Positions 43,640 to 60,061 of a stretch of 64,000 nucleotides of DNA are shown in pieces; the stretch's first letter is position 1, and the number at the start of each line of letters is the position of its first letter. The notes beneath the pieces are model-generated. The model had not been told where the DNA came from. It did not search any database and saw only the letters and a list, made by a program, of their open reading frames with translations. The DNA comes from a marine gamma proteobacterium HTCC2080 (GTDB lineage: Bacteria; Pseudomonadota; Gammaproteobacteria; Pseudomonadales; Halieaceae). A program made the position numbers and the translations under genes. The stretch covers positions 62,001-126,000 of the forward strand of contig AAVV01000011.1 of the NCBI GenBank assembly GCA_000169115.1. Reading direction: 5' to 3'.

Positions 43640-45559
43640 CTAGGCTTCCAGACGGCCTTTTTTAGCTGACATATCGCCCATTAACTGCATGAGTGCTGCC
43701 AAATTCAGGCTGCCGAGATCGGCGCCGTGACGCCCTCTTACCGCCACGGTACCTGCGGCCATTTCTTTGTCGCCGACCACCAAAACTAGCGGCACTTTTG
43801 CCAGCTCATGTTCTCGAATTTTAAAGCCAATTTTTTCATTGCGAAGGTCAGTACCCACTCTGAAACCTGCCTCCTTGAGATCGGCTGCCACCTGCTGCGC
43901 ATAAGCCCCCTGTTTATCTGTAATCGGTGCCACGATTGCCTGTTGAGACGCAAGCCACAATGGAAACTCTCCTTCATAGTGCTCTATGAGAATACCGATA
44001 AACCGCTCAAAGGATCCCAACACAGCGCGATGCAGCATGACTGGAACCTGTCGACTGCCATCCTCCGCCACATATTGTGCATCAAGGCGGCCCGGCATTG
44101 AGAAATCGACCTGAATCGTTCCCAGCTGCCAAACTCGGCCAATACAATCTTTCAGAGAGAACTCTATTTTTGGGCCATAAAATGCACCCTCGCCCGGAAG
44201 CATCTCCCAATTGAGATCCTTAGCGTCCAAAGCCTCCGCCAAGGCCGCCTCAGCTCTGTCCCAGTCGGTCTCGGAACCCACTCGCTCAGCGGGGCGTGTC
44301 GACAACCTGTAGATGACCTCAGTAAAGCCGAAGTCGGCATAGACTTCGTGCAGCATGTCGATAAAAGTGGCAACCTCAGACTGAATTTGCGCCTCCGTAC
44401 AAAAAATGTGCGCATCGTCTTGGGTAAACCCCCTTACCCGCATAATGCCGTGCAATGACCCCGAGGGTTCATTACGGTGGCAACTGCCAAACTCTGCCAA
44501 CCTCAGGGGCAGATCCCGATAAGACTTTAAGCCCTGGTTGAACACCTGAACATGACACGGGCAGTTCATGGGTTTAACCGCAAACTGTCGATCATCAGCA
44601 TCTAAGGTGAACATTCCTGACGCGAATTTGTCCGCATGTCCTGATCGCTGCCACAGCGAAATATCGACGACTTGCGGTGTCTTTATCTCTTCGTAATCGA
44701 AGCGCAGTTGCTGCTTGCGCATGTAACTTTCAATCACCTGATAAATCGTCCAACCAGCAGGATGCCAAAACACCATACCGGGGGCTTCTTCTTGTGTATG
44801 AAAAAGGTCAAGCTTTTTGGCGATTTTCCGGTGGTCGCGCTTTTCTGCTTCAGCGATTCTATTGAGGTAGGCCTTCAGTTGTTTTTTATTGCCCCAGGCG
44901 GTTCCATAAATACGCTGTAGCATCTGATTGTTAGCATCGCCGCGCCAGTAGGCTCCCGCCACTTTGGTCAACTTAAAAGCCTTTATCTTGCTAGTTGTAG
45001 GCACATGGGGGCCGCGACAGAGGTCCATCCACTCCCCCTGCTTATAGATCGAGATCTCTTCGCCCTCCGGGAGATCCTCAATAATCTGAACTTTGAAGTG
45101 CTCCCCCATGTTGCGAAACAGATCAATCGCTTGCTCTCTCGAATACACAACCCGTTCCACGGGAAGGTCTGCACTCGCAAGCTCCTCCATGCGCTTCTCA
45201 ATGCGCTCAAGATCTTCGGGGGTGAAATTGTGGCCTGTGGCAAAGTCATAGTAGAAGCCATTTTCGACCGTGGGGCCAATAGTGACCTGGGTACCGGGAA
45301 ATAACTGCTGTACCGCCTGAGCTAACAAGTGCGCGGTGGAATGCCGAATAATCTCAACCCCCGCTTCGTCACGCTCAGTAATAATACTCAGAGCACTGTC
45401 TGAATCGATAACGAATGAGGTATCTACCTCCCGTCCATCGACTACGCCAGCTAAAGCGGCCTTCGCAAGACCAGGGCCAATATCAAAAGCCACGTCAGCA
45501 ACGGAAACCGGTTGTTCAAAAGTGCGCTGGGATCCATCGGGAAGATTTATAACGGGCAT
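43640..45559 (-). CDS. thrS: threonyl-tRNA synthetase
   Basis: 639 residues, full length. N-terminal TGS domain ([20 protein letters not shown]), editing domain ([20 protein letters not shown]), catalytic core with zinc ligands in [18 protein letters not shown] and [11 protein letters not shown], motif 2 [17 protein letters not shown], and C-terminal anticodon-binding domain. GGAGAGTCCCT precedes ATG. The leader keeps an anticodon-arm mimic 24-44 nt upstream, but everything further upstream now belongs to an integrated element. Confidence 0.98.
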
Positions 45560-45582
45560 AGGGACTCTCCTTGTTGTCAGTG

Positions 45583-45603
45583 GCGACCCTTACCAAGGGC
45601 CGC
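45583..45603 (-). promoter_or_regulatory. thrS leader hairpin mimicking tRNA-Thr(GGU) anticodon arm
   Basis: On the mRNA strand GCGGCCC and GGGTCGC form a 7-bp stem (one G-U) around the 7-nt loop TTGGTAA, placing GGU at -35 to -33 from the thrS ATG. E. coli tRNA-Thr(GGU) has the arm CCCUUGGUAAGGG. E. coli thrS mRNA has an anticodon-like operator arm at about the same place, bound by ThrRS to repress its own translation. Operator function here is inferred from that precedent. Confidence 0.8.
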
Positions 45604-45606
45604 ATG
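45584..45606. repeat. attL core
   Basis: The left copy of the 23-bp direct repeat. It contains the perfect inverted repeat CCCTT-acc-AAGGG. The distance to the arm repeat is 52 bp. Confidence 0.7.
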
Positions 45607-45658: not shown

Positions 45659-45684
45659 GAGTGATACATTGAGTGATACATTTT
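45659..45684 (+). repeat. left arm-type tandem repeat
   Basis: Two adjacent copies of gagtgatacatt plus tt, identical over 26 bp to 61244-61269. It is probably an integrase arm-binding site. It lies 31 bp upstream of the integrase ATG and may also affect its transcription. Confidence 0.65.
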
Positions 45685-45715: not shown

Positions 45716-46969
45716 ATGCTCAAAGCAAAGCATCTGAACTGGAGAAAAGGTATCCCGTACATCCACTGCAGATACCCTTCACGCTTATCAGAAACTCTGA
45801 CCGAGATGGGACGGTCGACATTGTACAGGAAGGCCCTCGATGTTGGCGACAATCCCAGTGACGCTGAGGTTCTGGCCGCGCTCGAAAAGGCTCGGGAGAC
45901 GTTTAATGCATTATGCGACGGCTTATTCAGCAGTAACCGCCGGCATCTGACTGAGATGCAGCAACATCGCGCAGCACAAGCCTTCATGTCTGACGTCAAT
46001 CTAAGGCAGGGAGACGCAAAGACTGAGTTTGCCGCTTACCAAATTATGGCCAAGTCCGATGCAGCAGCCGGTCTAGACACAGACATCGCCGAGCGCGTAG
46101 AGGCCCTGCTGGTCGCTGACCCGGACGAGGAGCCCGATGCTCTGCTGATTTCAGATGCCATTGCTATATATAAGCAGCAGCAAACCGATCTCAAGTACCA
46201 CAGAGTGCTCGACCGTTTCCTGCAGCAGTCTGGCGATAGGCTACTCGACGGCTCTATTAATAGAAGGCTCCACAACTGGACTCAGGATCAGCTGAAGGAT
46301 CGCAACCCGGCAACCATCACAAAAGACCTCTCAATAATCCTGAGCTGCATGCGCGGAGCGGTTAAGGCTCGAGGCCTGTCGATCATGGTTCACAAGCCAG
46401 CGATCAAGCTCAACGAGGCTAAGCAGCGGGTCATTCTGACCAATCAGCAGCTCGAGGAGCTGTTCGCCCAAGACATGCCCGAGTACATAAGATGTGCATT
46501 CGTAGCAGCACTGACGCTAGGCGCGATCAACAGCGAAATCTACCGCATTGATCCGGGCACGGCTGGGAACGTTGACGGTTGCCTAGTGGTAAGAATTGAT
46601 GATGGCAAGACAAAGCACAGACGACGAAGTGGCCCACTGCCATGGCTGGCTCGATGGGTAGCGCCGAACGTAAGCGAGGGCCGACTCAGGGAAAATATGA
46701 CCGCACGTATCAAGAAGGTTAACCAGATGGCATCGCCTTACTCTCTGAGGCACACGTTTGCCCATGCCCATGCGATCAAACACACGCCCGACGTTGCACA
46801 GGCGCAGCTTGCGGGCTGGTCGTCACGAGCACGTCACAGCTACGGTCTGGGAGGCGTCCACTACGATGAGTTATTGCGGCCGCTAATACCAATTCAGCAC
46901 TCGACGTGGGACTGGCTGCTGAGCCCAAACCCTGCGGATAACGTCGTGAACCTTCGAAGTAAAGCTTGA
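45716..46969 (+). CDS. tyrosine-type site-specific integrase
   Basis: 417 residues. The N-terminal part (MLKAKHLNWRKGIPYIHCRY) resembles the arm-binding start of DUF6538-type integrases. A helical core-binding domain follows (about 150-240). The catalytic domain has box II SPYSLRHTFAHAHAIKH (about 343) and LAGWSSRARHSYGLGG with the probable Tyr near 375. At the box I position, where GLRxSE is expected, it reads LGAINSEIYRI (about 268), so the first catalytic Arg is not evident. The gene lies next to attL, as expected for the resident element's integrase. Confidence 0.85.
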   Translation: MLKAKHLNWRKGIPYIHCRYPSRLSETLTEMGRSTLYRKALDVGDNPSDAEVLAALEKARETFNALCDGLFSSNRRHLTEMQQHRAAQAFMSDVNLRQGDAKTEFAAYQIMAKSDAAAGLDTDIAERVEALLVADPDEEPDALLISDAIAIYKQQQTDLKYHRVLDRFLQQSGDRLLDGSINRRLHNWTQDQLKDRNPATITKDLSIILSCMRGAVKARGLSIMVHKPAIKLNEAKQRVILTNQQLEELFAQDMPEYIRCAFVAALTLGAINSEIYRIDPGTAGNVDGCLVVRIDDGKTKHRRRSGPLPWLARWVAPNVSEGRLRENMTARIKKVNQMASPYSLRHTFAHAHAIKHTPDVAQAQLAGWSSRARHSYGLGGVHYDELLRPLIPIQHSTWDWLLSPNPADNVVNLRSKA

Positions 46970-47042: not shown

Positions 47043-47927
47043 GTGACGACTAATGTTAGAAACGAAACAAATCACAAAATGATTTTGTGGCGAGTAGCTT
47101 TACTGTTGATATTGATGGGCCTTCTCGCACTCTCTGTAGATGACCTAACCCATTACGCGAACATACCAACGGTTGCGCTCACGCTCGCGCCTCTTGGACT
47201 CATCGCACTGACGGTGAAACTCATGGGTAAACAGTCACCACTCCCAGCCATTGACGCCTTGGCATTGCCCGTTGGGATATTTTTAGCTGGTGCTGGACTG
47301 ACTCAGGTTTTTCAATCTTTAACTGACCTCGTAGCAATACCGATAGTCACCGCGATACTGGTGATGCCTGCAATTTACGTGGGCGTCATTGCTGGGGTCA
47401 TACACTGCTGGCGAGGACAAAAGACGGAAACCAACATCAAGATTTCAACCCCTGCTACCGCCGTCTGCCTCGGCGTCTTACTGCTACTGGTTATCATCAC
47501 CTATGCGGACCATCTTTATCACTTCACCGATCGTAGCGACATCTGGCTGCTGCAGGCGGGGATCATCATCGCACTGACTCTTGGTCGCTCACCGGAAGCT
47601 GGGATTGCCAAATCACTTTGCAACGCGAGTCTGGTCAGCATCATGATCATGACTATCTTGGGCATAATCGAGCTCACTCTCGCGGGACAAAAGACAAGCT
47701 TTTCCGATCTCACCCAGTATATGTACGCCATAAACACCGCCTACACAGCGATGACAGCAGGCTTGGTCGCCTACATGGCCTCAATCATCATTTCTTTCAA
47801 AACGGGTGAGTTGGAAGAGCTACAACTTCCGACAAAGAATTGGCACTTAATAGAGGCTTTCAGTTTTCTGATCTTCATCACGCTTGCACCGCCGAGCATT
47901 TATCATTTCTTAGATGTGGCCCCTTAA
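47043..47927 (+). CDS. multi-pass membrane protein, unknown
   Basis: 294 residues from GTG 47043 (GAGGG upstream). About eight hydrophobic helices in pairs (ILWRVALLLILMGLLALSV, IPTVALTLAPLGLIALTV, AVCLGVLLLLVIITYA, WHLIEAFSFLIFITLAPPSI) with short charged loops. No transporter or enzyme motif recognised. It is element cargo between integrase and helicase-like genes. Confidence 0.7.
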   Translation: MTTNVRNETNHKMILWRVALLLILMGLLALSVDDLTHYANIPTVALTLAPLGLIALTVKLMGKQSPLPAIDALALPVGIFLAGAGLTQVFQSLTDLVAIPIVTAILVMPAIYVGVIAGVIHCWRGQKTETNIKISTPATAVCLGVLLLLVIITYADHLYHFTDRSDIWLLQAGIIIALTLGRSPEAGIAKSLCNASLVSIMIMTILGIIELTLAGQKTSFSDLTQYMYAINTAYTAMTAGLVAYMASIIISFKTGELEELQLPTKNWHLIEAFSFLIFITLAPPSIYHFLDVAP

Positions 47928-48020
47928 ATATCCTCATGCGCCAACGCACTGCAATCGCGGACCACCCTTTGAGGGGTGACCGCTTCGTATGATGGGTGCT
48001 GCTTGTTGGCTTGCCTCTGC

Positions 48021-50105
48021 CTAAAGAGGGCTCTTCTGCGACACATCTACCAGCTCAACCGCCACAGGCTGTCCGGCAAGCGCCGTCAGGCGCGCTTGCA
48101 CTGCTTCAAGGCTGTGGTTATCGGTCACGAGGGCCTCGCTCCAGCGGCGTTGTTTGGGAGTCTTGTACCGCAAGCTAAAAACCGCAACCTCGCTAATAAG
48201 TATATCTATTAGTGACCTTGCGGCTTTAAATTCTGCCACGCGATTTTCAGCTGTACGCTTCGAATTTAGACTGGTATCCGCTTTGCGTAAATGCTCAGCA
48301 TTAAGCGGCACAATCCCGTCACAGGCGCGCACTATCCGCTGCGATTCCTTGAGGGAATCCCAGCTCCATAGGTAGTCGATCCGCAGATCAAGCGGCAGTG
48401 AGGACAGGATGAATACCCTCCTATCTAACCCGCTTTTTGAGGGTCTCAACAGTCTCAAGCGATCGATAGCTTGCACCGACTCTGCCTCCCTAATCTGCCT
48501 GAGCAGCGCGTTTGCGCGCTGATCGGGATGCGCGTGTGTCTTTGCTGATTCCGTGCCGTCCTGAACCCAGTAGGTGCCTGACACTGGCTCAAAGGGACTG
48601 CTACCCGACTTGTCCTCCAGAAGCTTGAGAGGCTCTTCCGCGTCCCACCAAAGGGCGCGGGCCAGCTGCTCCAGCCCTGTAGTGGAGGGCTGTTCGCGGC
48701 CGACTATTACGATGTTTTGGTAGTCAGAGTACCTGTTAACTCCCCGTAACGAGTTGAAGTGTGTGAGGGTCGCACCTGCAAACGGTGTGTCCGCAGGTAA
48801 CTCTAAGTCCACCTCACCAGACAGAGCCTTTCTAACGCCTTTACTTGCCACGACAAGCGTTGCCCCGCTAGGGCTAACGCGTTCCACGAAAGTCTCAACA
48901 TCCTTCAACAGGGCTCCGTCATCTGCCTTCAACAGTGATGTCTTGCTGAAGGTACGATCCTTGAACTGATGAATCTCCGCTAGTCGCTCTACTGGGATAT
49001 CGACAAGGTCAACCTTCCGACCAAAATACAGCTCCAGCAGCGCCGGATCTGCATCTGCATCGATGATTAATACGGGAACATCAGGGATCTGCAGTTCCTT
49101 GCGACGTAAGACCAAAACGCCATCGCTGGAGCAAACAATTGCGTGAGATTCATTCCTTGTTGTGAGCCTCATTTCCTCTGCCAGCGTCTCTACCAGAGGT
49201 TTCATATTATTAGCCTCCAGACGCCCCACAGAAGCCTCCTGAGAGGCCAGTGGAGCGTTGATATCAAGAACTAGCGTGTGTCGTTGCTTGTCAGCTAGAA
49301 CCCGCTCAAGCTCGATCAAAAGCTCGTCAGGGGTGCATATTTCTCTGACCTTTTTCAGTAGCTCCTGCTCGCCGTTAGCCATCAGTTGGCAGACGTCAAA
49401 AAAGAAACTGTCTGGCCGCGCGAAACGGATGGCTTCTATCAGGGGTATCTGCATCTCGTGGAAAGCCTTTGTGACAAAGCCCTCGTCGATAACGATCAAT
49501 CCTGGCTGCATGAACCGCGATTGCGTACCTAGAAACATGTGCTCGTGGGTCATTACCTTGACCTCGGTGAGCACCTTGAACATCTCATCCTTGGGCAGTG
49601 AATCGTCCTTCAGCTGCTCCAGATACCCACATCCGTTGAAGAGCTCACACTCACCCTGGTCGCTTTTACATAGCGATGAGTACACGTTCTTACCCGCGGC
49701 AGCGAGCCTACCAGCGAGCTGGTGCTTTGGACACAGTGGCTGCCCAGCCGAATCCTTCTTCGACCGGCCCGCTATGATTCGGGCGCGCTGAAGAATGACG
49801 TCATGCGAGGGAATGGCCAAGGTCAGTTCATTGTTGAGGTCGTCCAGAAGCTGCTGCGACAGCTTGTGGTTAGGCACAAAGTAATGCACATCGCCGTGCT
49901 CTAGCAGGTTGTAAGACAGCAGCTGCTTGATGACGCTCTGCGTCTTACCGAGGCCCGCAGTGGCCTTTATGGCCATTAATGGCGCCGGACCTTTCTCAAC
50001 GTTAGTAGCCGTTAGATGGGCGACTGCGTCGTCACCGAAGGACGCAATGGCCTCCTTAAGCTTAACTTCCGCCTCTGACAGATTGAGTAACTTTTTGACT
50101 GGCAT
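48021..50105 (-). CDS. helicase-like P-loop ATPase of the element
   Basis: 694 residues from ATG 50105, with GGAGTGGGACT upstream; a start 11 codons earlier has no site. Walker A is IKATAGLGKTQSVIKQLL, Walker B GLIVIDEGFVTKAFHE. Between them a Cys cluster (C-x20-C-x6-C-x5-C-x-Y, ending GCGYLEQL) recalls Fe-S or zinc inserts of XPD/DinG-like helicases. The C-terminal half contains FNSLRGVNRYSDYQNIVIVG and SVQAIDRLRLLRPSKSGLDR, as in helicases of mobile elements. It is probably for element replication or DNA processing; exact family uncertain. Confidence 0.7.
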   Translation of the reverse strand: MPVKKLLNLSEAEVKLKEAIASFGDDAVAHLTATNVEKGPAPLMAIKATAGLGKTQSVIKQLLSYNLLEHGDVHYFVPNHKLSQQLLDDLNNELTLAIPSHDVILQRARIIAGRSKKDSAGQPLCPKHQLAGRLAAAGKNVYSSLCKSDQGECELFNGCGYLEQLKDDSLPKDEMFKVLTEVKVMTHEHMFLGTQSRFMQPGLIVIDEGFVTKAFHEMQIPLIEAIRFARPDSFFFDVCQLMANGEQELLKKVREICTPDELLIELERVLADKQRHTLVLDINAPLASQEASVGRLEANNMKPLVETLAEEMRLTTRNESHAIVCSSDGVLVLRRKELQIPDVPVLIIDADADPALLELYFGRKVDLVDIPVERLAEIHQFKDRTFSKTSLLKADDGALLKDVETFVERVSPSGATLVVASKGVRKALSGEVDLELPADTPFAGATLTHFNSLRGVNRYSDYQNIVIVGREQPSTTGLEQLARALWWDAEEPLKLLEDKSGSSPFEPVSGTYWVQDGTESAKTHAHPDQRANALLRQIREAESVQAIDRLRLLRPSKSGLDRRVFILSSLPLDLRIDYLWSWDSLKESQRIVRACDGIVPLNAEHLRKADTSLNSKRTAENRVAEFKAARSLIDILISEVAVFSLRYKTPKQRRWSEALVTDNHSLEAVQARLTALAGQPVAVELVDVSQKSPL

Positions 50106-50400
50106 AGTCCCACTCCAAATGAACGCTTTAAACGTCATTCATAGTAGTAATTAGCTCTCGATGGTGATCAACATATCGCGCCGATCGATGGGCCATTTGC
50201 GCCAAGTGAATCGCGCGGAAATACCTATGCCGGGGGGGGGCTTTTTGAATCTGTTATTGCGGTGGCAGCCAACCCCCCATGCAAAGAGCCCAAACTAGGT
50301 GTCCCAAAAAAGACCCCATGAGGGCTGTCCCACTCCGCTCCTTTATGGCTGGGCTCATACTAACTACCCGCCCTTTCGCCTTCAACACGGGACAACACGC
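50106..50400. other. intergenic; nothing recognised apart from a G9 run
   Basis: Divergent leader between the helicase-like gene and a small gene. A run of nine or more G lies near 50230. Confidence 0.35.
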
Positions 50401-50670
50401 ATGAACCCTGACCAACCACCCCTCCCCAGCTATCTCGAGTGGGCCAACACCTGGCGCCGGATAGTTGATAAGCACCCCGACACTCACTGCCAGTACCTTG
50501 GCACCGAGCTGGCAGATGACGGCTCAACGCTGGTGTCTGTGAGCGTGACCCACAAGGGCCATACAACCACCGTAAAGCACCCTGCGGCCGGCGATGGCCA
50601 AAGCGCCCTGCTCAATGCTTACATGCGCGGAGTGATAACAGCCCTCGCAGAGGCGGGCGTCGAAATCTAA
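50401..50670 (+). CDS. small protein, unknown
   Basis: 89 residues from ATG 50401; an upstream extension to 50299 lacks a site. Two parts: SYLEWANTWRRIVDKHPDTH at the start, then a beta-rich stretch (STLVSVSVTHKGHTTTVKHP) and a C-terminal helix (SALLNAYMRGVITALAEAG). Soluble. No family recognised. A hairpin repeat begins 16 nt after the stop. Confidence 0.6.
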   Translation: MNPDQPPLPSYLEWANTWRRIVDKHPDTHCQYLGTELADDGSTLVSVSVTHKGHTTTVKHPAAGDGQSALLNAYMRGVITALAEAGVEI

Positions 50671-50981
50671 AAAAGGGACGAATCTGGGCCCCGCTTTCGC
50701 ACCGTGGGGCAGACGGTCGGAATGGCTGCAAGGGAAGCTCCATGCGCACTCAATTGGCGTCCAATCATCTTCGGCATACAGCACCTCTGTTTGGCTAACT
50801 TTCTAAACAAACAGCATCTAACGACTATGCAAAGTTAGTGTGTGCAGCCTTAACTGGCGCAGAGACTCCATAGAAAGCAGTCACCATTTGAACGGCAGAC
50901 TGAGTTGAAAGCTCCGTAGTATGGCGGTCGTGGAAAAGCTTGTCGCTTGGTTTTCCTACTGACCTAATCAAGGAAACGTAA
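50671..50981. other. intergenic with hairpin repeat
   Basis: It holds repeat copy E. A 67-codon minus-strand frame (50825-51028) is noted elsewhere as rejected. Confidence 0.4.
50686..50748 (+). repeat. two-hairpin repeat, copy E
   Basis: GCCCC/GGGGC stem around gctttcgcaccgt, linker agacggtcgga, then GGCT/AGCt around gcaaggga. Confidence 0.7.
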
Positions 50982-53258
50982 ATGTTATTTGCATCAAGTC
51001 TTAGACCGCCATCTTCGGGTCTCACCACTCCACCGTTAGAAGATCAAAATCGCCAGCTCTCTATTCAGGCAATCCTAATTCTCACTCTCGTCATACTGGG
51101 CTTCAATACGAATGTTCTGGCGCAGGAGTCAATCTCGTTAGGAGACTTTCAAAGCACTCTGCGAACATCCTTGATTGGGAGTACTGAGGGAAGAGCCTTT
51201 ACCCCAAACTCTAACTTGAGAAACTTGGTTCGTGGCTCGGTAATGCAGTTTGTTCCTCCGGGCGGCGCTAATGTGGATTTTGAGGTAGACAGAGTCCAAC
51301 TCACTACGTCAGGAAATTTAGGTGTCGTTTCAAAAGTGGCCCCTGGAAAGTGGATGAGAATACTGATTCACGAGGATGGCAGCTTCTTTGGCACTATTGT
51401 TGTGGGAGGAGTGACCTACCTTGTGGAAGCCGCTTCGGGACAATCAATTTTTTACTCCACAGCTGATGGAACCGTTGCAGAGAGCCCTTTTGCTAATGAT
51501 ATTGTTGAAGGCACTTTGACCTCTGAATCTATTGCAGGCGATGTATCTTCCACTGTCAGTGCTAACCCTCATGTGATAACAGTTGGCATTCTTTATGACT
51601 CTGCATTAGCCCTCGCAGACCCGAATCAGCTCCTTTATTGGATTGACAGCCTAATTTTTAGTGCAAACCAAACTTACCAGGCTAGCGGTGCTAATGTGGA
51701 ATTCAGTGCGGTGGCAATTTCCGAATATGAGCCCGGATCAGCGCTTGAGATATCAGAAAAACTTAGATTCATCACTTGCGGAACCTCGAGCTGCGATCCG
51801 AGCACTGTCCTGGAAAATGGAACTGTTTCAAGTTGGCGAGATCAGGTTAAAGCCGATTTAGTCGTGCAGTTAACAAGAACAGGGACTGGCGGCACCTGCG
51901 GCGTAGGATGGGTTCCGCAGAGCCTAACGAGCGATAGTGTGAAGGTACTGGGGTATTCTGTATCGGCGTATCAGAACGGTAACGGACAAAATTGTCCATC
52001 AGCTGTTGTCGCACACGAAATGGGCCACAATTTAGGACTGGTTCACGATAGGACAACCCAAGCAGGTGGAGGCGCGCCACTTTATTCTTATGGGTATGGC
52101 TTCCGTTTGTCCGAGGGTTACGGCACAACAATGTCATATCCTGAAAAAGGCTTCAGCGGATATATTCCGTACTTGTCAAACCCAAACATTGTTATCGACG
52201 GCTTGCCTCTTGGAGAGCCTGAGGGCAGCCCTCTTTCTGCTAATTCGGCGCTCGCGGCCACACGTACAATCCCGTATTTCGAGGCCAATTATGAGAACAG
52301 GGATGTACAGCTCATTCCACCTGCTCCAGTGCTGGAAAACGTGACTAGCTCAAGCACTGCTGCAACAGTATTTTTCCAATCAAAGCGAAATATAGGTCAA
52401 CCAACCCCAACATTCTTTACCGCGAATTGCGGTGGCACTCTGATATCCGGATCATCATCGCCGATAACGCTGACAGGCTTAAGTCCTGTATCAAGCTACA
52501 GCTGTAGCGTAAGGGCCTCAAATCAGTACGGCGTAAGCCCAGTCTCAAATTCGATAACGGTGGCGGCGCTTTCAGAGAGCGAGGTTCAAATTACCGAGGT
52601 CTATATTGGCTTGCAAGGAAGAGCCCCCGACCCTGGAGGTTTAGCCTACTGGGTAAACCAGCTTGACGCTGCAATCGCTGCAGGGCAAACGCGAAGTAGT
52701 GCGTTGAAGAAGCTGACGAACGACATTACGCTGAGTGCGGAATGGGATGCGGGCATAGGCGCCAATGACGGGCTCACGCAATCAGGCGCCGAAGCGATAG
52801 TCAGGGCTATGTACCTCAACCTCTTTGACCGACCAGCAACGGCCTCCGATGTGGCTTACTGGTCCGCCGATCTTACAACCGGACGCGTCACTGAGTCGGA
52901 GATGGTGGTGCTGCTTATTCTGGGAGCGCAATCCAAGGGCAACGCAGATAGCCAGGTGCTTGAGTTTAAGCGCCAAGCCGCCAGCTACTATTCGAGCAAC
53001 ATTACGTCGGCTTCATTCTCGAGAGAAAGCGCCACCGAAGCGGTTGCTGATGTAACTAATGAGCAATCACTGTTGGCATCTCAGAATGCTACTGACGCAC
53101 TCCTAGCTTCCTCAGGTCGGTCAGCATCTGACATATCAGACTCACAGCGAATCCCGACACTGCCTGCCGGCGCTTTATTGATGCTTGCTGGGCTCATGCT
53201 GCTTCTCGCATGGCGTTTTTCGTCATCCAGAGCACTACGAAGTTCTGGTAGAGCTTAG
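50982..53258 (+). CDS. reprolysin-type metalloprotease with FN3, DUF4214 and IPTL-like tail
   Basis: 758 residues; AAGGAAACGTAA precedes ATG. A long N-region precedes the export helix (SIQAILILTLVILGF). The catalytic site is AHEMGHNLGLVHDR (about 345), the metzincin HExxHxxGxxH. An FN3 domain (about 440-525) and a DUF4214 domain (about 530-690, GRAPDPGGLAYWVNQLD) follow. The C-terminus is IPTLPAGALLMLAGLMLLLA plus a basic tail, matching IPTL-CTERM-type sorting signals. The last 520 bp are almost identical, inverted, to the 3' end of the gene at 54.0 kb. It is a probable surface-retained protease. Confidence 0.88.
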   Translation: MLFASSLRPPSSGLTTPPLEDQNRQLSIQAILILTLVILGFNTNVLAQESISLGDFQSTLRTSLIGSTEGRAFTPNSNLRNLVRGSVMQFVPPGGANVDFEVDRVQLTTSGNLGVVSKVAPGKWMRILIHEDGSFFGTIVVGGVTYLVEAASGQSIFYSTADGTVAESPFANDIVEGTLTSESIAGDVSSTVSANPHVITVGILYDSALALADPNQLLYWIDSLIFSANQTYQASGANVEFSAVAISEYEPGSALEISEKLRFITCGTSSCDPSTVLENGTVSSWRDQVKADLVVQLTRTGTGGTCGVGWVPQSLTSDSVKVLGYSVSAYQNGNGQNCPSAVVAHEMGHNLGLVHDRTTQAGGGAPLYSYGYGFRLSEGYGTTMSYPEKGFSGYIPYLSNPNIVIDGLPLGEPEGSPLSANSALAATRTIPYFEANYENRDVQLIPPAPVLENVTSSSTAATVFFQSKRNIGQPTPTFFTANCGGTLISGSSSPITLTGLSPVSSYSCSVRASNQYGVSPVSNSITVAALSESEVQITEVYIGLQGRAPDPGGLAYWVNQLDAAIAAGQTRSSALKKLTNDITLSAEWDAGIGANDGLTQSGAEAIVRAMYLNLFDRPATASDVAYWSADLTTGRVTESEMVVLLILGAQSKGNADSQVLEFKRQAASYYSSNITSASFSRESATEAVADVTNEQSLLASQNATDALLASSGRSASDISDSQRIPTLPAGALLMLAGLMLLLAWRFSSSRALRSSGRA
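52700..53208 (+). repeat. inverted repeat arm 1 (shared DUF4214/IPTL 3' end)
   Basis: About 0.5 kb, nearly identical at nucleotide level to the reverse complement of about 54039-54546. Identity breaks at about 52700 on the gene side and at the codon after LLLA on the stop side. One amino-acid-frame check shows only a single base difference in 230 bp. Confidence 0.85.
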
Positions 53259-53314
53259 TTCCGCCTAGGCAACTGCATAAAGAAAGTCCATAGGGGCCTC
53301 CGCTTGTTCCGAGC

Positions 53315-53339
53315 AGCCCCGCTTTCGCACCGTGGGGCT
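53315..53339 (+). repeat. two-hairpin repeat, copy F (hairpin 1 only)
   Basis: AGCCCC and GGGGCT form a perfect 6-bp stem around gctttcgcaccgt; the rest of the element is absent. It lies 57 nt after the metalloprotease stop. Confidence 0.6.
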
Positions 53340-53381
53340 ACGCGCTAGAGTACGCGCTTCAACCTCACAAGGAACGTGACA

Positions 53382-53852
53382 ATGATTACCTTTCCAAAAG
53401 CAGACGTGATTCCATTTGGAGAGCACGGCGACAAACTTGGCATGACGCGGTACGAAATACTGCAGATGATGCACAATAACAATGGTTATTTCGGCGATGC
53501 TATGGAGCTATTTCTAACCATGCTATTCGGCTACATCGTTGCCATGTATCTGGCGGCACCGAAGCTGTCCCGGACTCAATACACCATAGCCAACACGGTG
53601 TTTCTCGTTCCCATGGCAAACCACGTCCTCTTTATGTATAGGGCCGTGACCGAAAGCTCCCAGTGGGAAATTTGGAACGGACGATACGGACCCGAGGTCG
53701 CAAGCTTTTTCTACGAGAATTTCCCTCTGTGGCTTAACGCGGTGAACTTCTACTTGCAATTTTTCATATTAATTGGCTTGCCCTTGCTGGCGGTCTGGTT
53801 CGGCTGGCGTATCCGCAAGAACCCACCGCAGGACAGGCTGAATCTGCCATAG
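53382..53852 (+). CDS. three-helix membrane protein, unknown
   Basis: 156 residues from ATG 53382, with AAGGA 8 nt upstream. A polar N-terminus (PKADVIPFGEHGDKLGMTRY) precedes three transmembrane helices (FLTMLFGYIVAMYLAA, IANTVFLVPMANHVLFMY, YLQFFILIGLPLLAVWFGW). No family recognised. It lies between the two inverted DUF4214 gene ends, so it is the segment that would flip if they recombined. Confidence 0.65.
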   Translation: MITFPKADVIPFGEHGDKLGMTRYEILQMMHNNNGYFGDAMELFLTMLFGYIVAMYLAAPKLSRTQYTIANTVFLVPMANHVLFMYRAVTESSQWEIWNGRYGPEVASFFYENFPLWLNAVNFYLQFFILIGLPLLAVWFGWRIRKNPPQDRLNLP

Positions 53853-53863
53853 GCGATTGAGTA

Positions 53864-53926
53864 GGCCCGTTAGCGCACCGTGGGGCAGACGGCAGGACTA
53901 GGTGACAAGGGACACCTAAGCGCCTA
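53864..53926 (+). repeat. two-hairpin repeat, copy G with compensatory stem change
   Basis: Hairpin 1 is GCCC/GGGGC around gttagcgcaccgt. Hairpin 2 is TAGGTG/CACCTA around acaaggga, whereas other copies have TGGCT/AGCCA. Both strands of the stem changed together, which supports a selected structure. Confidence 0.75.
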
Positions 53927-54017
53927 GGTAAGATGCTCTAGCTGAGCATTCGTTGGAACATCAGAAGCGATCACCTTCGTCGGCACTTCCGCATTTGCCA
54001 AAGTTTCAGGTTGGGTC

Positions 54018-57000
54018 CTATGACGTAAAGCGCCTCGCGAGAAGCAGCATGAGCCCAGCAAGCATCAATAAAGCGCCGGCAGGCAGTGTCGGGATTCGCT
54101 GTGAGTCTGATATGTCAGATGCTGACCGACCTGAGGAAGCTAGGAGTGCGTCAGTAGCATTCTGAGATGCCAACAGTGATTGCTCATTAGTTACATCAGC
54201 GACCGCTTCGGTGGCGCTTTCTCTCGAGAATGAAGCCGACGTAATGTTGCTCGAATAGTAGCTGGCGGCTTGGCGCTTAAACTCAAGCACCTGGCTATCT
54301 GCGTTGCCCTTGGATTGCGCTCCCAGAATAAGCAGCACCACCATCTCCGACTCAGTGACGCGTCCGGTTGTAAGATCGGCGGACCAGTAAGCCACATCGG
54401 AGGCCGTTGCTGGTCGGTCAAAGAGGTTGAGGTACATAGCCCTGACTATCGCTTCGGCGCCTGATTGCGTGAGCCCGTCATTGGCGCCTATGCCCGCATC
54501 CCATTCCGCACTCAGCGTAATATCGTTCGTCAGCTTCTTCAGCGCTAAACTTCGGGCTTGGCCTGCAGCGATTGCAGAGTCAAGCTGGTTTACCCAGTAG
54601 GCCAACCCTCCTGGATCAGGCGCTCTTCCTACCAAACCGATATACGCTTCGGTGATCTGAATCTCGGATACGGTCGCCACTGCCTCAGGGGCAGGAATGA
54701 TTGGGTCAGTCGCCGCAGAGGCTGGGCTGGTTCCTTCTGAGTTGGTGGCAGTTACCGTACAGGTATAGGCAACGTCATTGGTTAAACCCGAAACTGTAAT
54801 CGGAGATGTGGCGCTGGTGCCTGTGTAGGTGTTGGTGCCATCTGTGCAGGAAGCGTCGTAACGAATGATGTCCACTCCACCGTCATCAGCTAGTCGCACC
54901 CTCAATATGATTTCACGGTCGTCGTAATCAGTAGATAGGACGACTGGGCGGCTGGGCTTGGCGACTGATTTACCATAGTAAATGCCCAATTCGAGCACGT
55001 TGTGTATATCCCGGACCTGTTTAACTTCGCTCAAATTGAGGATATCGATCACCCCATCATCGTTAAGGTCTGCAAAGTGCTGCCATGTTGTGCCCAAATC
55101 AAACGGTATTGCACTAGACTCTAAAGCCACCCTCCTCAAAGAACCTGTTTGGTCATTGACCATCAAGTTTACAAAACGGCACGAAGACTCTTCCCAGTTG
55201 GGGCCCCAGCCCGCCTCGATCGCGTCGGGGCATAAATCAGGGCGCAGTCTCCACGAATTGCCCAGCATCGCATCATCAAATTCAATATAGTCCTCGTACC
55301 CGTCGCCATTTACGTCCTTGAATGGCTTGGAATAGAGATTTGCGACATGACTGCCTGCCTGCCCTCCACCCTCGACATAATCTGACCTATGCGTTTGGGT
55401 GCCCCAATCGAATCTGTCGTCGTAAGTAGGGTTTTGATCAAGAGGCAGCGCCACTAGCGTGCCATCTTCTCTGAGGCTGAATGCCGCGTAGAATCTATCC
55501 GCAGCCCAAACATCGTCCCTGCTGAGACACTCTTCCTCCGTATGACCATTCGGGATGCCTAATATCTCGAGATCAAGACCCATACCGCAAAAATTTCGGC
55601 CCGGTTGGCCCGGCAACGCGTCCAATTTTTCTTGATCGAAATATTCCAGTCGAAAACCGAAAATGTCAGCCAAGATGACGGGATCCTCGCCCGGCCGGGC
55701 ACGAAAGAGATGATAATCCTCGTGGTAAATCGGAAGGTAGTGGTTACCGTATACAGTCAGGCCCGCCCAGCCGCCGCCATATCGAAAAGTCGTGAAGTGC
55801 TCGTTCTCCTCGGTGGCGCCCGCAAACTCGGGACCCAGATTTCCAAACACGCTTAGTGTGAAATATGGACTGCCATACTGGACACCACCTCCCCTGGTGG
55901 ACATTGATATCGTTTTGCCAGCGGAATCCGTCAGGTGTCGCTTGGAGCTGTCAAACTCGTGATGATGCTTAAGCTGTTTATTGTGAGTTGAGCCAAGTGG
56001 AGTACCAGATTTGAACGACCATCGAGGAACTTCCGGAGATTCCTCACCTGGCTTCAAGAGATAAACCGACGAGAAAACGTCAATCAAATCGTCACCATTG
56101 ACCTCAAGCGCGGCTGGTGGTTCGCAGCTCCACTCCGAGGCACCAGAGATGACATCGACCAAGTTATCGCAGCTCAATGCGAAATTGACGACTGTCCACT
56201 TTCCCCGAGAGTCTCTATAGGCTGAGAAGACTTTATTCCATTCGCCCAAAGACGTAACGTCATAGCTCCCGTCACTCTGGCTGAGCACCAAGAAGTCCGT
56301 GGCAAGCCAGCCGCCTTCGAATGGCTGCGGGTAAGGTTCGCTCGTCGCGAGAGCGCTCTGCCATAAACCTTCTGCAACACCGTCATTCGCATTATCTCTA
56401 TCGGACGCCAACACAAAATCCATGCGGCCATCACCGTTGTAGTCATCTACTTCCTTGAAATGTTGTCCACCAACGAACTTGCCTACCGACACTTCGGCCT
56501 GCCCGAATAACTTTCGATTAGCAGGGATGAAACCGCCCGACGCCGTTTGCTCAAGAACGATGAGGTAACCCGTGCTTTCGGTGCCGACGCCAATGTCGTG
56601 GTTGAGCGTCCCGCAGGTAGCAAGCATCACGATGTCTTTCCGGCCATCACCAGTCATATCGAAGGCTTCAAGTTTTGTATGATGATTAAGCTCGATGCGA
56701 CCATTTGTCCATCCGTACTCGCGCTGCTCTTGGTCGTACCAAGTGGTGTCGACGCACGATGGGATATCCATCTCAAAATTGTTGGACCAAAAATCTGGTG
56801 CCGACAGAAAACCCACTCGGAAATGCTGGTCCTCGGTGAGCAAAAACTCGGCGTCTTCAAAAAAAGTCCGGAACTCAGTTCCCCTTTCAATATTCAGCCA
56901 GTCCTGCCAAATCAACCACGTTCTGAAGGGATACAACTCGTCTTGCGGGGCGCCCGCCTCAAATTCTTGCCAACCCACAAAGTCAAGCTTCCCTGCCTCC

Positions 57001-57257
57001 AGAGGACTAGCAGTTAACTCCAAAAAGGGGAGCGCCTCGGCGCCTGACGTGACCCATATTGGCTCCCAATAGCATCCATCGGAATTACTGCAACGATAAG
57101 ACTTGTCTCGCGTTGAAATTTCTGTCCCGGGGTGCGGTTTCAGAAAAACCGCCGTGGCGCTCGGCAATCCAGATGGCTGAGCGTGTGCGCCGGCGACAAA
57201 CAGTAAGAAAACCACTGATAGAAAAGACTTAACGACGATGCCCTTAAACGAAGTCAT
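54018..57257 (-). CDS. secreted VCBS/FG-GAP, FN3, DUF4214 protein with IPTL-like tail
   Basis: 1079 residues with a signal peptide (SFLSVVFLLFVAGAHAQ). At least five Asp-rich calcium motifs of the FG-GAP/VCBS type are seen: DMTGDGRKDIVML, DYNGDGRMDFVLA, EVNGDDLIDVFSS, DVNGDGYEDYIEF, DLNDDGVIDILNL. They suggest a propeller-like N-terminal domain. An FN3 domain (about 770-855), a DUF4214 domain (about 865-1020) and an IPTLPAGALLMLAGLML membrane tail follow. The 3' end is an inverted near-copy of that of the metalloprotease. The start overlaps the stop of a 35-codon leader gene. Confidence 0.85.
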   Translation of the reverse strand: MTSFKGIVVKSFLSVVFLLFVAGAHAQPSGLPSATAVFLKPHPGTEISTRDKSYRCSNSDGCYWEPIWVTSGAEALPFLELTASPLEAGKLDFVGWQEFEAGAPQDELYPFRTWLIWQDWLNIERGTEFRTFFEDAEFLLTEDQHFRVGFLSAPDFWSNNFEMDIPSCVDTTWYDQEQREYGWTNGRIELNHHTKLEAFDMTGDGRKDIVMLATCGTLNHDIGVGTESTGYLIVLEQTASGGFIPANRKLFGQAEVSVGKFVGGQHFKEVDDYNGDGRMDFVLASDRDNANDGVAEGLWQSALATSEPYPQPFEGGWLATDFLVLSQSDGSYDVTSLGEWNKVFSAYRDSRGKWTVVNFALSCDNLVDVISGASEWSCEPPAALEVNGDDLIDVFSSVYLLKPGEESPEVPRWSFKSGTPLGSTHNKQLKHHHEFDSSKRHLTDSAGKTISMSTRGGGVQYGSPYFTLSVFGNLGPEFAGATEENEHFTTFRYGGGWAGLTVYGNHYLPIYHEDYHLFRARPGEDPVILADIFGFRLEYFDQEKLDALPGQPGRNFCGMGLDLEILGIPNGHTEEECLSRDDVWAADRFYAAFSLREDGTLVALPLDQNPTYDDRFDWGTQTHRSDYVEGGGQAGSHVANLYSKPFKDVNGDGYEDYIEFDDAMLGNSWRLRPDLCPDAIEAGWGPNWEESSCRFVNLMVNDQTGSLRRVALESSAIPFDLGTTWQHFADLNDDGVIDILNLSEVKQVRDIHNVLELGIYYGKSVAKPSRPVVLSTDYDDREIILRVRLADDGGVDIIRYDASCTDGTNTYTGTSATSPITVSGLTNDVAYTCTVTATNSEGTSPASAATDPIIPAPEAVATVSEIQITEAYIGLVGRAPDPGGLAYWVNQLDSAIAAGQARSLALKKLTNDITLSAEWDAGIGANDGLTQSGAEAIVRAMYLNLFDRPATASDVAYWSADLTTGRVTESEMVVLLILGAQSKGNADSQVLEFKRQAASYYSSNITSASFSRESATEAVADVTNEQSLLASQNATDALLASSGRSASDISDSQRIPTLPAGALLMLAGLMLLLARRFTS
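54039..54546 (-). repeat. inverted repeat arm 2 (shared DUF4214/IPTL 3' end)
   Basis: The partner of 52700-53208. The two arms are separated by about 0.83 kb carrying the three-helix membrane protein gene and repeat copies F and G. Confidence 0.85.
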
Positions 57258-57361
57258 AGCCGGATTCCTCGTGATGTTCCATCACTTTCGGCTGAGCATA
57301 GATACTGTTCGGCCAGCACTGGATTAGCTACCAGCAGCGCACAGATTATGAGTCGGTTCAT
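57254..57361 (-). CDS. 35-residue signal-peptide mini-gene coupled to the VCBS gene
   Basis: ATG 57361 has a strong AGGAGAAAGATA site. The product is a signal peptide (MNRLIICALLVANPVLA) plus EQYLCSAESDGTSRGIRL. The stop overlaps the ATG of the next gene (TATGA). It looks like the 5' end of another exported-protein gene truncated by the arrival of the VCBS gene, now kept as a coupled leader. Confidence 0.5.
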   Translation of the reverse strand: MNRLIICALLVANPVLAEQYLCSAESDGTSRGIRL

Positions 57362-57809
57362 TATCTTTCTCCTAAGTTCATGCCCAAGTATGCTCGGGTA
57401 CGGCCCCTAAAAGATGTGCAAATCGCGTCGCTCATTGTGCAGAGTTCGACCATAAGCGGGCGCCTATAATTTTGGAAATGACGCTAATGGGTAGGAAGTC
57501 ACAGGGGCGCTGTGGCTACATTGCAGCTCAATACTGCTGCGCAGCGCTAAAAGTTGCGTCTAAAGGGCTGTCACGGTTGCTACCTAGTGATGTAACTAAG
57601 GAGTCTGGAGGTACCTTGAGGCCTGCTGTATAGCCATAGCGCCCCTGTAGTGTCGCCACAGCCTGACCATATGCCCACATCATCTGCAGCCGTTTGTAGT
57701 CGCACTGGGCACATATGTTGGCGTACTTCGCAAAGAACGCTTTCGTCGAATCTATGAAGCTATCCCCACTGTGAATGCCCCAACAGGGCGACCTAAAAAG
57801 GATAGTTCT
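57362..57809. other. intergenic with partial hairpin repeat
   Basis: Contains repeat copy H (57619-57680). No other gene recognised. Confidence 0.4.
57619..57680 (+). repeat. hairpin repeat, copy H (3' half plus extension)
   Basis: tagccatagcgcc followed by tgtcgccacagcctgaccat, the same tail as copy C at 5.97-6.04 kb. Confidence 0.5.
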
Positions 57810-58748
57810 ATGAATAATAATATATTTGCTCCAGCACTGATTACAGCCGGGTTGATGATGATATCCCCACTCTCCGCAAACGCCGTGAGCTATCAGGTCT
57901 CCGGAGTGATGTGTGACTCGGTGAACAACAGCGGCACTTACGACAGGAGTCAAGGCATTGAAAATACAAAAGCTTCTGGGGATGTCTGGGTAAGTTGTCC
58001 AGTGATTAATTTCGGAGGGGCCGAAGAGATGAGGACTCAGGTTAACTTGCTTAACAACAGTAATTTAGATGCTGAAGTTTCGTGCTACTTCCGAGAGCGA
58101 AAACACGGAAATGTCGTGAATTCATCAAAGGGAGTCGTAGATGTAGAGGGTAATGGCTTCTCCGAGGAGATGTTCTGGGAGGGGCAGCTGGACGCTGATA
58201 CCCATGCAAACATCGATTGTAAGTTGCCACCGGGCATGACTATTGAGTCTCTATCTTTTTCCGCACTAGGAGAGGGCGGCTCTGGCCCGGGCTCAAACGT
58301 TGAGGCGCGAGCATGCCTTACTGCACCTAGCGGCACCTTCAGCAGCTCTAGCCAAACAGTCGACTTCCGAAATGGTCTGAGCGCCAATAATTACAATGGG
58401 CACTACTGGCATAGCGGAGATGACACCACTGTATTTCAAACCTCAGCTGGGGTGTGGCACGTGATAACTGACACAGATACTAATGCCAGCGAGGTTTTCC
58501 AGTTAGATGTTCGATCAGAACCAAGCTCATGTATGGAGCCAAGCTATGGTAGACCTGAAGGTATCGCCACTGACAGATCGGGAAATAAGGTACTTGAGTT
58601 TGCCGACGTTGAGATAACCGTTGGAAGTGGCTGTGATATAGACACCGGCTCTAGACTTTTGATCTATCAAGCTGATTACCAATACAACTGGCTGGTTGAT
58701 ATTAATAACGCCGAGACTTGTCGTGTGAAGAGCTTTGAAGAGCTCTAA
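57810..58748 (+). CDS. secreted Cys-containing protein, unknown
   Basis: 312 residues from ATG 57810, with AAAAGGATAG upstream. The signal peptide ends near LSANAVS. The mature protein is beta-rich, Ser/Asn-rich and contains about eight Cys spaced across the chain (MCDSVNN, VSCPVINF, SCYFRER, IDCKLPPG, RACLTAPSG), probably forming disulphides. No family recognised. It is part of the element cargo. Confidence 0.7.
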   Translation: MNNNIFAPALITAGLMMISPLSANAVSYQVSGVMCDSVNNSGTYDRSQGIENTKASGDVWVSCPVINFGGAEEMRTQVNLLNNSNLDAEVSCYFRERKHGNVVNSSKGVVDVEGNGFSEEMFWEGQLDADTHANIDCKLPPGMTIESLSFSALGEGGSGPGSNVEARACLTAPSGTFSSSSQTVDFRNGLSANNYNGHYWHSGDDTTVFQTSAGVWHVITDTDTNASEVFQLDVRSEPSSCMEPSYGRPEGIATDRSGNKVLEFADVEITVGSGCDIDTGSRLLIYQADYQYNWLVDINNAETCRVKSFEEL

Positions 58749-58909
58749 CTTCCAAGAGGGGGTGGTCACCGCCGCCCCATAACATTCTATCTTCCCATTT
58801 ACAGCAGGCGGCATCGGCACATAGGTTGGCGTCGACTGCACAGCCTCTAGGCGCAATGCCACGCAGACTAGGCACATCAAATAATTAGAAGCGTTCAGGG
58901 AGATTTATC

Positions 58910-59524
58910 ATGTCACTTATTCATTGTTCAGTGTGTGCACATCAGGTTTCTGTGTCGGCAAAGCAGTGTGTTGGCTGTGGCCACCCACTCAAGGGGACTA
59001 GGAGCTCTAATAGGCTGCTGGGAATCGGCTTAGCTGCTCTGATGACACTCACCCTAGGTGTAGGTGTCTATCGAGTGGCTCCGGCTGCAACAGAGAATTT
59101 TGTAGCAGAGCTTTCGTCCGTCTACGAGCGTTCTTCTGCTCCGAGTGAGCAACCGGATTCTTGGGCAAGTACCCACACAATGATCAACCGATTGAGCAGC
59201 CAAGACCTACACAAGGAGCTCACGGCTTACTCGATGCGGGTTAATCGGCTAACTCCGTACAAGCCCAATCCGATGGTGACGCTTCATCAGGTCGCTTACC
59301 AGAGCAAACCAGTTCACCTTACCTATGAGTACGAGCTGAATGCGATGACGAGTAAGCAGCCCGTGGATTTCGAGGCGATTGCACCAATGCTTCAGCGACG
59401 TTACTGCACGAACCCTGAATTCGAGCTGGCAGCTGCTAATGGCGTGCCTGTTACTTGGGAGTACTACGACGATGGGCGCCTGCTGTACAAGAGCACAGTC
59501 TCGCACTGCGGAGAATCGGCTTAA
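58910..59524 (+). CDS. zinc-ribbon membrane protein
   Basis: 204 residues; ATG preceded by AGGGAGATTTATC. The N-terminal zinc ribbon is MSLIHCSVCAHQVSVSAKQC followed by VGCGHPLKG (two CxxC pairs). One transmembrane helix (LLGIGLAALMTLTLGVGVY) then a periplasmic domain with two late Cys (RRYCTNPEFELAAANG, SHCGESA). A terminator follows at 59.63 kb. Function unknown. Confidence 0.72.
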   Translation: MSLIHCSVCAHQVSVSAKQCVGCGHPLKGTRSSNRLLGIGLAALMTLTLGVGVYRVAPAATENFVAELSSVYERSSAPSEQPDSWASTHTMINRLSSQDLHKELTAYSMRVNRLTPYKPNPMVTLHQVAYQSKPVHLTYEYELNAMTSKQPVDFEAIAPMLQRRYCTNPEFELAAANGVPVTWEYYDDGRLLYKSTVSHCGESA

Positions 59525-59629
59525 GAAGACAGCGAATAGCGCACTGTTCATTCTCCGCCCTGAGGACTAATGAAGATATAACCGAGTCTTTGTTCAACCA
59601 TGGACTTATTCTAAGTTTGAGCGTCCCTT

Positions 59630-60021: not shown

Positions 60022-60061
60022 CGACTAGCGCCATGGCGCTTTATTAAGCGAGGAAAGAACC

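What the first reader, a model, noticed from the sequence alone, without database searches (positions are those of the whole stretch)
45583..45606. Element inserted into a tRNA-Thr anticodon mimic in the thrS mRNA leader
The attL core is the thrS leader hairpin whose loop and upper stem (CCCTTGGTAAGGG) equal the anticodon arm of tRNA-Thr(GGU), with GGU at -35 to -33. Integrases often use tRNA anticodon arms as cores. Here the target seems to be the mRNA copy of that arm that ThrRS reads as an operator. An element moving from tRNA gene to tRNA mimic would be a notable attachment-site shift.
Basis: partly seen in the sequence, partly recalled or inferred. Interest (0 to 1): 0.88.

Follow-up and report, generated by a model that had tools for sequence, protein, structure and literature searches.

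The report
Island inserted in thrS operator hairpin
A 15.8-kb island in a marine bacterium sits exactly in the RNA hairpin that mimics a threonine tRNA in front of the threonyl-tRNA synthetase gene, although the relatives of its integrase that could be placed sit at real tRNA genes; an unrelated E. coli prophage uses the same hairpin, so it looks like a recurrent, little-noticed insertion site.

Summary
A 23-bp repeat (45584-45606; 61351-61373, one mismatch) bounds a 15.8-kb island whose left core is the thrS leader hairpin. That hairpin is a conserved anticodon-arm mimic: a 7-bp stem and 7-nt loop was recovered in 31 of 32 thrS loci, loop positions 4-5 are GT in 21 of 21 distinct sequences, and the stem covaries. 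A second genome of the genus carries an 89%-identical integrase at the same site with both junctions; relatives without the island hold one copy.

Fifteen further integrase relatives could be placed, all at tRNA genes or tRNA 3' ends (13 weaker or cut hits were not placed), so a tRNA-gene to mRNA-mimic shift is plausible. But the six with both junctions use the T-arm/3' end, and none of the fifteen uses tRNA-Thr(GGU), which shares 11 nt with the core.

In E. coli 1296KP a P4-type prophage occupies the same hairpin; 74 of 5375 E. coli genomes have a split leader. Phage Oslo has a matching attP-like stretch. The thrS operator is thus used by unrelated integrases. Recombination, circles and ThrRS binding were not tested.

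The parts
43640..45559 (-). thrS, threonyl-tRNA synthetase; gene whose leader is the attachment site
   Evidence: Pfam tRNA-synt_2b, TGS, tRNA_SAD, HGTP_anticodon
45583..45603 (-). thrS leader hairpin, 7-bp stem and 7-nt loop TTGGTAA with GGU at -35 to -33 (Thr anticodon mimic)
   Evidence: sequence; conserved with covariation; E. coli homologue GTGATCT-TTCGTGT-GGGTCAC
45584..45606 (+). attL core, 23 bp
   Evidence: direct repeat with 61351-61373, one mismatch; longest exact shared stretch 16 bp
45659..45684 (+). tandem 12-bp repeat GAGTGATACATT x2, presumed integrase arm site (left)
   Evidence: exact copy at 61244; period-12 tandem at a similar distance in 10 of 13 relatives
45716..46969 (+). 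tyrosine-recombinase-type integrase, 417 aa, catalytic Arg-I position is Ile271
   Evidence: phrog_1 integrase E 4e-9; motif alignment
47043..60427 (.). island cargo: reprolysin-like metalloprotease with DUF4214 (50982-53258 +), FG-GAP/DUF4214 protein (54018-57257 -), Rap1a-type immunity protein (60062-60427 +), unknown ORFs; no conjugation or phage structural gene among the ORFs scanned
   Evidence: ORFs; ten ORFs against Pfam, eight against PHROGs, seven against PADLOC
61244..61269 (+). tandem 12-bp repeat, presumed integrase arm site (right)
   Evidence: identical to 45659-45684
61351..61373 (+). attR core, one mismatch to attL; on the - strand an orphan copy of the hairpin (CGGCCCTTGGTACGGGTCG)
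61374..61650 (-). presumed native upstream region of thrS, now separated from thrS by the island
   Evidence: inferred from gene order: in relatives without the island the leader is followed by the response-regulator gene with no integrase of this family between; this stretch itself did not align to them
61651..62349 (+). response regulator gene, right chromosomal neighbour, also beside thrS in relatives
   Evidence: order

Best explanation
Positions 45584-61373 are an integrated element. Its integrase belongs to an unnamed, divergent tyrosine-recombinase family whose other placed members sit at tRNA genes, and here it recombined with the chromosomal thrS leader. The attachment site is the ThrRS operator hairpin, an anticodon-arm mimic. 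Integration cut thrS off from its own upstream region; the element's attP supplied a copy of the 5' strand and loop of the hairpin, so the operator was rebuilt in front of thrS, as tRNA-targeting islands rebuild the tRNA end. The element must also supply the promoter that now transcribes thrS. Shown: repeats, empty sites, a second genome with the same site, tRNA-gene neighbours of relatives, hairpin conservation, use of the same site by an unrelated prophage. Inferred: strand exchange within loop plus 5' strand, arm-site role of the 12-bp repeats, the new promoter, ThrRS binding in this species, and the direction of the target change.
For: 23-bp direct repeat and 26-bp inner repeats at both ends. 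G007 (a Luminiphilus MAG): same site, integrase 89% identical over 357 residues (contig end), attL on one contig and attR on another, sharing 18 bp CCGCACCAAGGGCCGCAT; exactly two copies of the arm repeat in each genome. Relatives G002, G003, G005 and G046 have one core copy with 1 to 4 mismatches in the stretches held, and the response regulator beyond it. Integrase relatives at tRNA genes: 15 of 15 placed, three of these by eye from a tRNA-like 3' end; both junctions found in 6 (G171, G048, G807, G482a, G010, G020). Period-12 tandem repeats 44 to 59 bp after the CCA in 10 of 13 relatives tested, 9 of them reached by at most 3 of 200 shuffles; 52 bp after the core here. Leader mimic. E. coli 1296KP prophage in the same hairpin, ends sharing 23 bp TCTTTGTATGTGATCTTTCGTGT that end with the loop; 74 genomes with a split leader; phage Oslo.
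Against: No sigma-70-like promoter was found in the left end that now precedes thrS (0 found, 0.2 expected). Arg-I is missing in the integrase, normally essential (recalled), so activity is unproven. GC of the island equals its flanks. G044, whose thrS is 93% identical over the 289 residues held, has no hairpin within 6 mismatches of the core and about 5 kb of other DNA before the response regulator, so the locus also changes in other ways. G000 and G007 may descend from one ancestral insertion rather than two. The tandem repeat was not found in G790 and G016, was no better than shuffles in G370 (51 of 200), and has period 11 at 75 bp in G020.
Confidence: 0.87

Rival explanations
1. The integrase reads the DNA as a tRNA-Thr(GGU) anticodon arm: the element came from the tRNA-Thr(GGU) gene and hopped to the mRNA copy of that arm.
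For: Hairpin is an anticodon-arm mimic; the core contains CCTTGGTAAGG of the own tRNA-Thr(GGU); two distant relatives that keep Arg-I sit next to tRNA-Thr(CGU) and G807 at tRNA-Thr(UGU).
Against: None of the 15 placed relatives is at tRNA-Thr(GGU); the six cores seen at both ends lie in the T-arm/acceptor part; best match of the core to 26 of 38 own tRNAs is 13 of 23 and in other tRNAs.
Confidence: 0.08
2. The site is used only because it is a conserved, near-palindromic stem with a 7-nt loop in DNA (like the T-arm), not because of any tRNA mimicry; mimicry matters only through the conservation it causes. This is compatible with the best explanation.
For: Relatives use the T-arm side of many different tRNAs; the E. 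coli prophage integrase, without detectable sequence similarity, shares the same 5' strand plus loop; the core does not stand out against any one own tRNA.
Against: No binding or recombination data exist for either side of the question; nothing here tests loop against stem.
Confidence: 0.5
3. Not a mobile element: a rearrangement or duplication produced two copies of the leader hairpin around ordinary genome DNA.
For: GC of the island equals the flanks; no transfer genes among the ORFs scanned.
Against: Integrase next to the core, arm-like repeats at both ends, similar junction design in relatives at tRNA genes, a second genome whose 4 kb next to the right end mostly do not match.
Confidence: 0.04

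Closest known systems
E. coli thrS operator, ThrRS-binding domain 2 (recalled: Springer, Romby, Moras groups); E. coli leader read
   Same: Same 7-bp stem and 7-nt loop (GTGATCT-TTCGTGT-GGGTCAC) followed by CACTG and the ribosome-binding site; Thr anticodon triplet in the loop
   Different: GGU instead of CGU in the loop; here the 5' strand and loop are on the element side of the junction; ThrRS binding not tested in Luminiphilus
tRNA-gene genomic islands restoring the split gene (Islander-type islands, PMC4383910, search listing with start of abstract only)
   Same: Tyrosine integrase next to attL, direct repeat that restores the target, displaced fragment at the other end
   Different: Target is an mRNA leader hairpin upstream of an essential protein gene, so a promoter rather than a terminator has to be supplied (inferred)
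V. cholerae Aux3 element, P4-type integrase, attB between gcvT and thrS (PMC7721734; section 6 and passages read)
   Same: Integrates upstream of thrS at a defined attB; excision and integration shown experimentally there
   Different: Integrase named P4-type there; the main text has no occurrence of 'leader' or 'tRNA'; whether its attB is the operator hairpin was not checked
S. Typhimurium wzy locus, 113-bp direct repeats, reversible excision, recombinase unknown (PMC12074656; abstract, outline and passages read)
   Same: One repeat lies between wzy and thrS; its replacement slowed growth, potentially through the thrS promoter in the authors' words
   Different: The authors name no recombinase; the repeat sequence was not compared here
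Lambdoid prophage of E. coli 1296KP and Salmonella phage vB_SosS_Oslo
   Same: 1296KP: both ends share the 5' strand plus loop of the same hairpin. Oslo: a 180-bp, 78% copy of the thrS upstream region ending in the loop, 180 bp before its integrase
   Different: Integrases with Arm-DNA-bind_3 and Phage_integrase domains and Arg-I present by eye; no meaningful similarity to the island integrase

Membership tests
tRNA-targeting tyrosine-integrase island (this integrase family) | Integrase homologous to the family | tested here: met
   phrog_1 E 4e-9; complete relatives 21-29% identical in alignments; tree of 17 rows
tRNA-targeting tyrosine-integrase island (this integrase family) | Core direct repeat at both ends with integrase next to one | tested here: met
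tRNA-targeting tyrosine-integrase island (this integrase family) | Period-12 tandem repeats between core and int, and again inside attR | tested here: met
   for the window; on the int side in 10 of 13 relatives; at the other end read by eye in G171, G482a and G048
tRNA-targeting tyrosine-integrase island (this integrase family) | Core lies in a tRNA gene | tested here: not met
   core is the thrS leader; the only tRNA in the window is Pro at 35815
Tyrosine recombinase, catalytic set R-K-H/Y-R-H/W-Y (set recalled) | Arg-I in box I | tested here: not met
   Ile271; not Arg in 14 of 17 aligned rows, Arg in 3
Tyrosine recombinase, catalytic set R-K-H/Y-R-H/W-Y (set recalled) | Lys, Arg-II, Trp and Tyr motifs | tested here: met
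   K298, YSLRH at 342-346, GW and Y in the C-terminal motif of G000; function untested
ThrRS translational operator | Hairpin upstream of the ribosome-binding site with NGU in the loop, conserved with compensatory change | tested here: met
ThrRS translational operator | ThrRS binds it and represses thrS | not testable with these tools
   known for E. coli (recalled); no data for Luminiphilus
P4-type thrS-leader prophage | Integrase homologous to the 1296KP/Oslo integrase | tested here: not met
   best blastp E 0.76 over 23 residues

The most novel reading that the evidence does not exclude
tRNA-mimicking mRNA operators form an attachment-site class of their own: unrelated integrases (an Arg-I-less family of tRNA genes, P4-type phage integrases, and possibly the agents behind Aux3 and Salmonella wzy) have converged on the same 5' strand plus loop of the thrS operator, because it is conserved like a tRNA gene and can be restored by a short attP copy; occupancy puts promoter supply of an essential synthetase under element control.
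Probability: 0.5. Interest if true: 0.78.

Novelty: new variant of a known kind. Interest (0 to 1): 0.64.

Why it matters
It shows a member of an integrase family of tRNA genes using an mRNA hairpin that imitates a tRNA, and a prophage with a dissimilar integrase using the same hairpin. It gives a mapped site to test why tRNA genes are favoured targets (conservation, symmetry or restoration). It suggests a check for two published elements next to thrS, one of which has no known recombinase. It also would make an essential gene depend on a mobile element for its promoter.

Tried and rejected
Rejected: duplication without mobility (integrase, arm repeats, second genome). Rejected as the main model: origin from the tRNA-Thr(GGU) gene. 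The match of the orphan attR hairpin to a terminator is at chance level (1 found, 0.6 expected). No Rfam family at the gathering score matched the window except tRNA-Pro, and none at E up to 1 in 45500-61700. The integrase had no relative in phages, plasmids or three viral-contig scans. A search of 369 class genomes for the E. coli prophage integrase gave two hits of 34-36% identity at the strict limit 1e-60, not followed. The five viral contigs with the E. coli-type hairpin (L157-L161) were read only around the hairpin and compared with the E. coli thrS region; no 1296KP/Oslo-type integrase was found in the stretches held. A second pattern, of the Luminiphilus type, gave no viral contig. Not placed: G001, G024-C22 and the 11 weak class hits other than G482 (G109 among them: no tRNA in the 12.5 kb held). 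Structure prediction was never obtained.

Full report
Observation. The 23-bp core CGACCCTTACCAAGGGCCGCATG is at 45584-45606 and, with one mismatch, at 61351-61373. An inner 26-bp repeat made of two 12-bp copies (GAGTGATACATT) starts 52 bp inside the left core and occurs again before the right core. In the own genome a 16-mer of the core at up to 2 mismatches hits these two places and one other. On the - strand the left core is the thrS leader hairpin GCGGCCC-TTGGTAA-GGGTCGC with GGT at -35 to -33. A 417-aa integrase starts 109 bp after the core (phrog_1, E 4e-9; no Pfam integrase hit).

The mimic. I extracted thrS leaders from 32 loci (the 30 loci plus L041 and L042; G000 and G007 included). 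A rule that asked only for a 7/7/7 hairpin with at least five pairs followed by CAC[TC]G found it in 31 of 32; the miss, L024, has CGT in the corresponding loop and a different following motif. Among 21 distinct hairpins, loop positions 4-5 are GT in 21, and position 3 is G in 14, C in 6 and A in 1: always a Thr anticodon. The loop was not used to choose the hairpins. The stem has 95.2% paired cells; covariation score 0.529 against 0.300 in shuffles, 0 of 500 as high, and 0.04-0.14 when slid; five of seven pairs show double changes (27 of 500 shuffles reach that), and the number of further pair types does not exceed shuffles (375 of 500). The pairing rule itself favours paired cells. The E. 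coli leader has the same hairpin, which is the ThrRS operator domain as I recall it from the literature.

Empty and filled sites. The genus is Luminiphilus, inferred from the title of the record that equals G007's contig and from the kinship column. G007 carries an integrase 89% identical at the same site; its right junction was found on another contig through the arm repeat. Its two cores share 18 bp, CCGCACCAAGGGCCGCAT, and the response-regulator gene follows as in the window. Of the 4 kb inside its right end, little beyond the last 0.4 kb matches the window. Relatives G002, G003, G005 and G046 hold one core copy (1 to 4 mismatches, searched at up to 6) in the stretches held, with the response regulator 0.5 to 2.3 kb beyond it; G004, G010, G045 and G022 also hold one. 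Among 37 thrS stretches (some from the same genome, mostly with 1.5 kb of flank), an integrase of this family or of the E. coli prophage type was found only in the two from G000 and G007. G044 (thrS 93% identical over 289 residues) has about 5 kb of other genes there and no core-like hairpin.

The integrase family. Searches of 38 relatives, 390 order genomes, 369 class genomes and 57 genus genomes, and one genome-contig scan, gave the family. Besides G000 and G007, 15 members could be placed, and 15 of 15 lie at a tRNA gene or tRNA 3' end: Asn in G171, G370, G017 and G019; Phe in G048 and G016; Leu in G804, G020, G010 and G790; Arg in G024; Thr(UGU) in G807 (ARAGORN; G807); and two in G482 and one in L120 at tRNA-like 3' ends judged by eye, since ARAGORN called no gene on these cut stretches. 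G010, G790 and G019 are broken copies and G016 a piece at a contig end. Not placed: G001, G024-C22 and 11 weak class hits. Two more distant ones that keep Arg-I lie next to tRNA-Thr(CGU). Both junctions were seen in six: shared 31 bp (G171), 31 (G048), 28 (G807), 22 (G482a), 18 (G010) and 14 (G020), all in the T-arm to CCA part. So these members do not use anticodon arms. G807, like the window, has the integrase pointing against the sense of its target; those with ARAGORN tRNAs beside the integrase point with it. A period-12 tandem repeat 44-59 bp after the CCA was found in 10 of 13 relatives tested, nine of them clearly above shuffles; not in G790 or G016, and with period 11 at 75 bp in G020. 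This puts the window core, 52 bp before its repeat, in the same register.

Direction of change. The tree groups G000 and G007 (100/100) but does not say which tRNA user is their sister, and the Arg-I-less clade itself is weakly supported (77/92). Since the other placed targets are tRNA genes, a change to the leader is the simpler reading, not proved. The model of a jump from the tRNA-Thr(GGU) gene has no support: that tRNA shares 11 nt with the core, and the best match of the core to 26 of 38 own tRNAs is 13 of 23, in other tRNAs.

Convergence. Of 5375 E. coli genomes with a match, 5301 have one place covering at least 80% of the leader query; the other 74 do not, and there are 74 extra places. 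I read one of them at base level: in strain 1296KP a 47-kb lambdoid prophage separates the two places; its ends share 23 bp, TCTTTGTATGTGATCTTTCGTGT, ending with the hairpin loop, after which one side continues into thrS. Its integrase is found in 73 genomes (70 over at least 80% of its length) and the phage-type leader, at 80% coverage or more, in 74; I did not match the three lists genome by genome, but for five strains printed in both lists, integrase and leader are 45.7-48.0 kb apart. Salmonella phage Oslo has a 180-bp, 78% copy of the thrS upstream region ending in the hairpin loop, 180 bp before its integrase (the first hit alone had E 0.6; longest exact stretch 17 bp). These integrases have Pfam Arm-DNA-bind_3 and Phage_integrase domains and show no meaningful similarity to the island integrase.

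Mechanism. Inferred: the integrase exchanges strands within the loop and 5' strand; the attP copy rebuilds the operator; the native promoter stays at the other end with an orphan hairpin. The element must provide the promoter for thrS, yet the scan found none, so this is the weakest step. In phage Oslo and the E. coli prophage the phage side carries a diverged copy of the host's own upstream region, which may solve the same problem.

Prior work. Searches for thrS or threonyl-tRNA synthetase with integration terms, and one for integrases with synthetase leader and operator terms, returned few papers. PMC7721734 (section 6 and passages read) shows integration and excision of Aux3 between gcvT and thrS; 'leader' and 'tRNA' do not occur in its main text. 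PMC12074656 (abstract, outline and passages read) describes 113-bp direct repeats between nucA, wzy and thrS with unknown mechanism. PMC3091717 (section 7 read) lists thrS among genes flanking variable regions in Photorhabdus and Xenorhabdus. None of the passages I read names the ThrRS operator as the attachment site; most subscription papers were not searchable.

Noticed in passing
window 45716-46969; L118, L119, L120, L121, L122 and genome-search loci: 14 of 17 aligned integrase rows lack the first catalytic arginine of tyrosine recombinases (Ile, His, Met or Gly instead), yet several of them have open genes and matching att sites; three rows keep Arg.
   Followed up: partly
L062 (G044) 870-6000: Relative with thrS but without the anticodon-mimic hairpin; about 5 kb with a TIR-like/TPR-like and an S53-protease-like ORF (judged by eye) lies between thrS and the response regulator.
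   Followed up: partly
window 50688-50747, 53316-53338, 53864-53923: Three copies of a 23-nt hairpin-like repeat (GCCCCGCTTTCGCACCGTGGGGC; one copy 83% alike), two of them within 58-nt repeats, next to the DUF4214 cargo gene at 50982-53258; no Rfam match.
   Followed up: partly
L162 (E. coli 1296KP): One integrase lineage, at least 99% identical in 73 E. coli genomes, with the phage-type thrS leader in 74.
   Followed up: partly
PMC12074656, S. Typhimurium nucA-wzy-thrS: The reversible wzy excision repeats lie in the nucA/wzy and wzy/thrS intergenic regions; a thrS-leader-specific phage integrase acting in trans would be a candidate for the unknown recombinase.
   Followed up: no
L151 (G807:C1:1750000-1769500): Family member at tRNA-Thr(UGU) with the integrase at the end away from the tRNA and in opposite orientation, like the thrS case.
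   Followed up: partly
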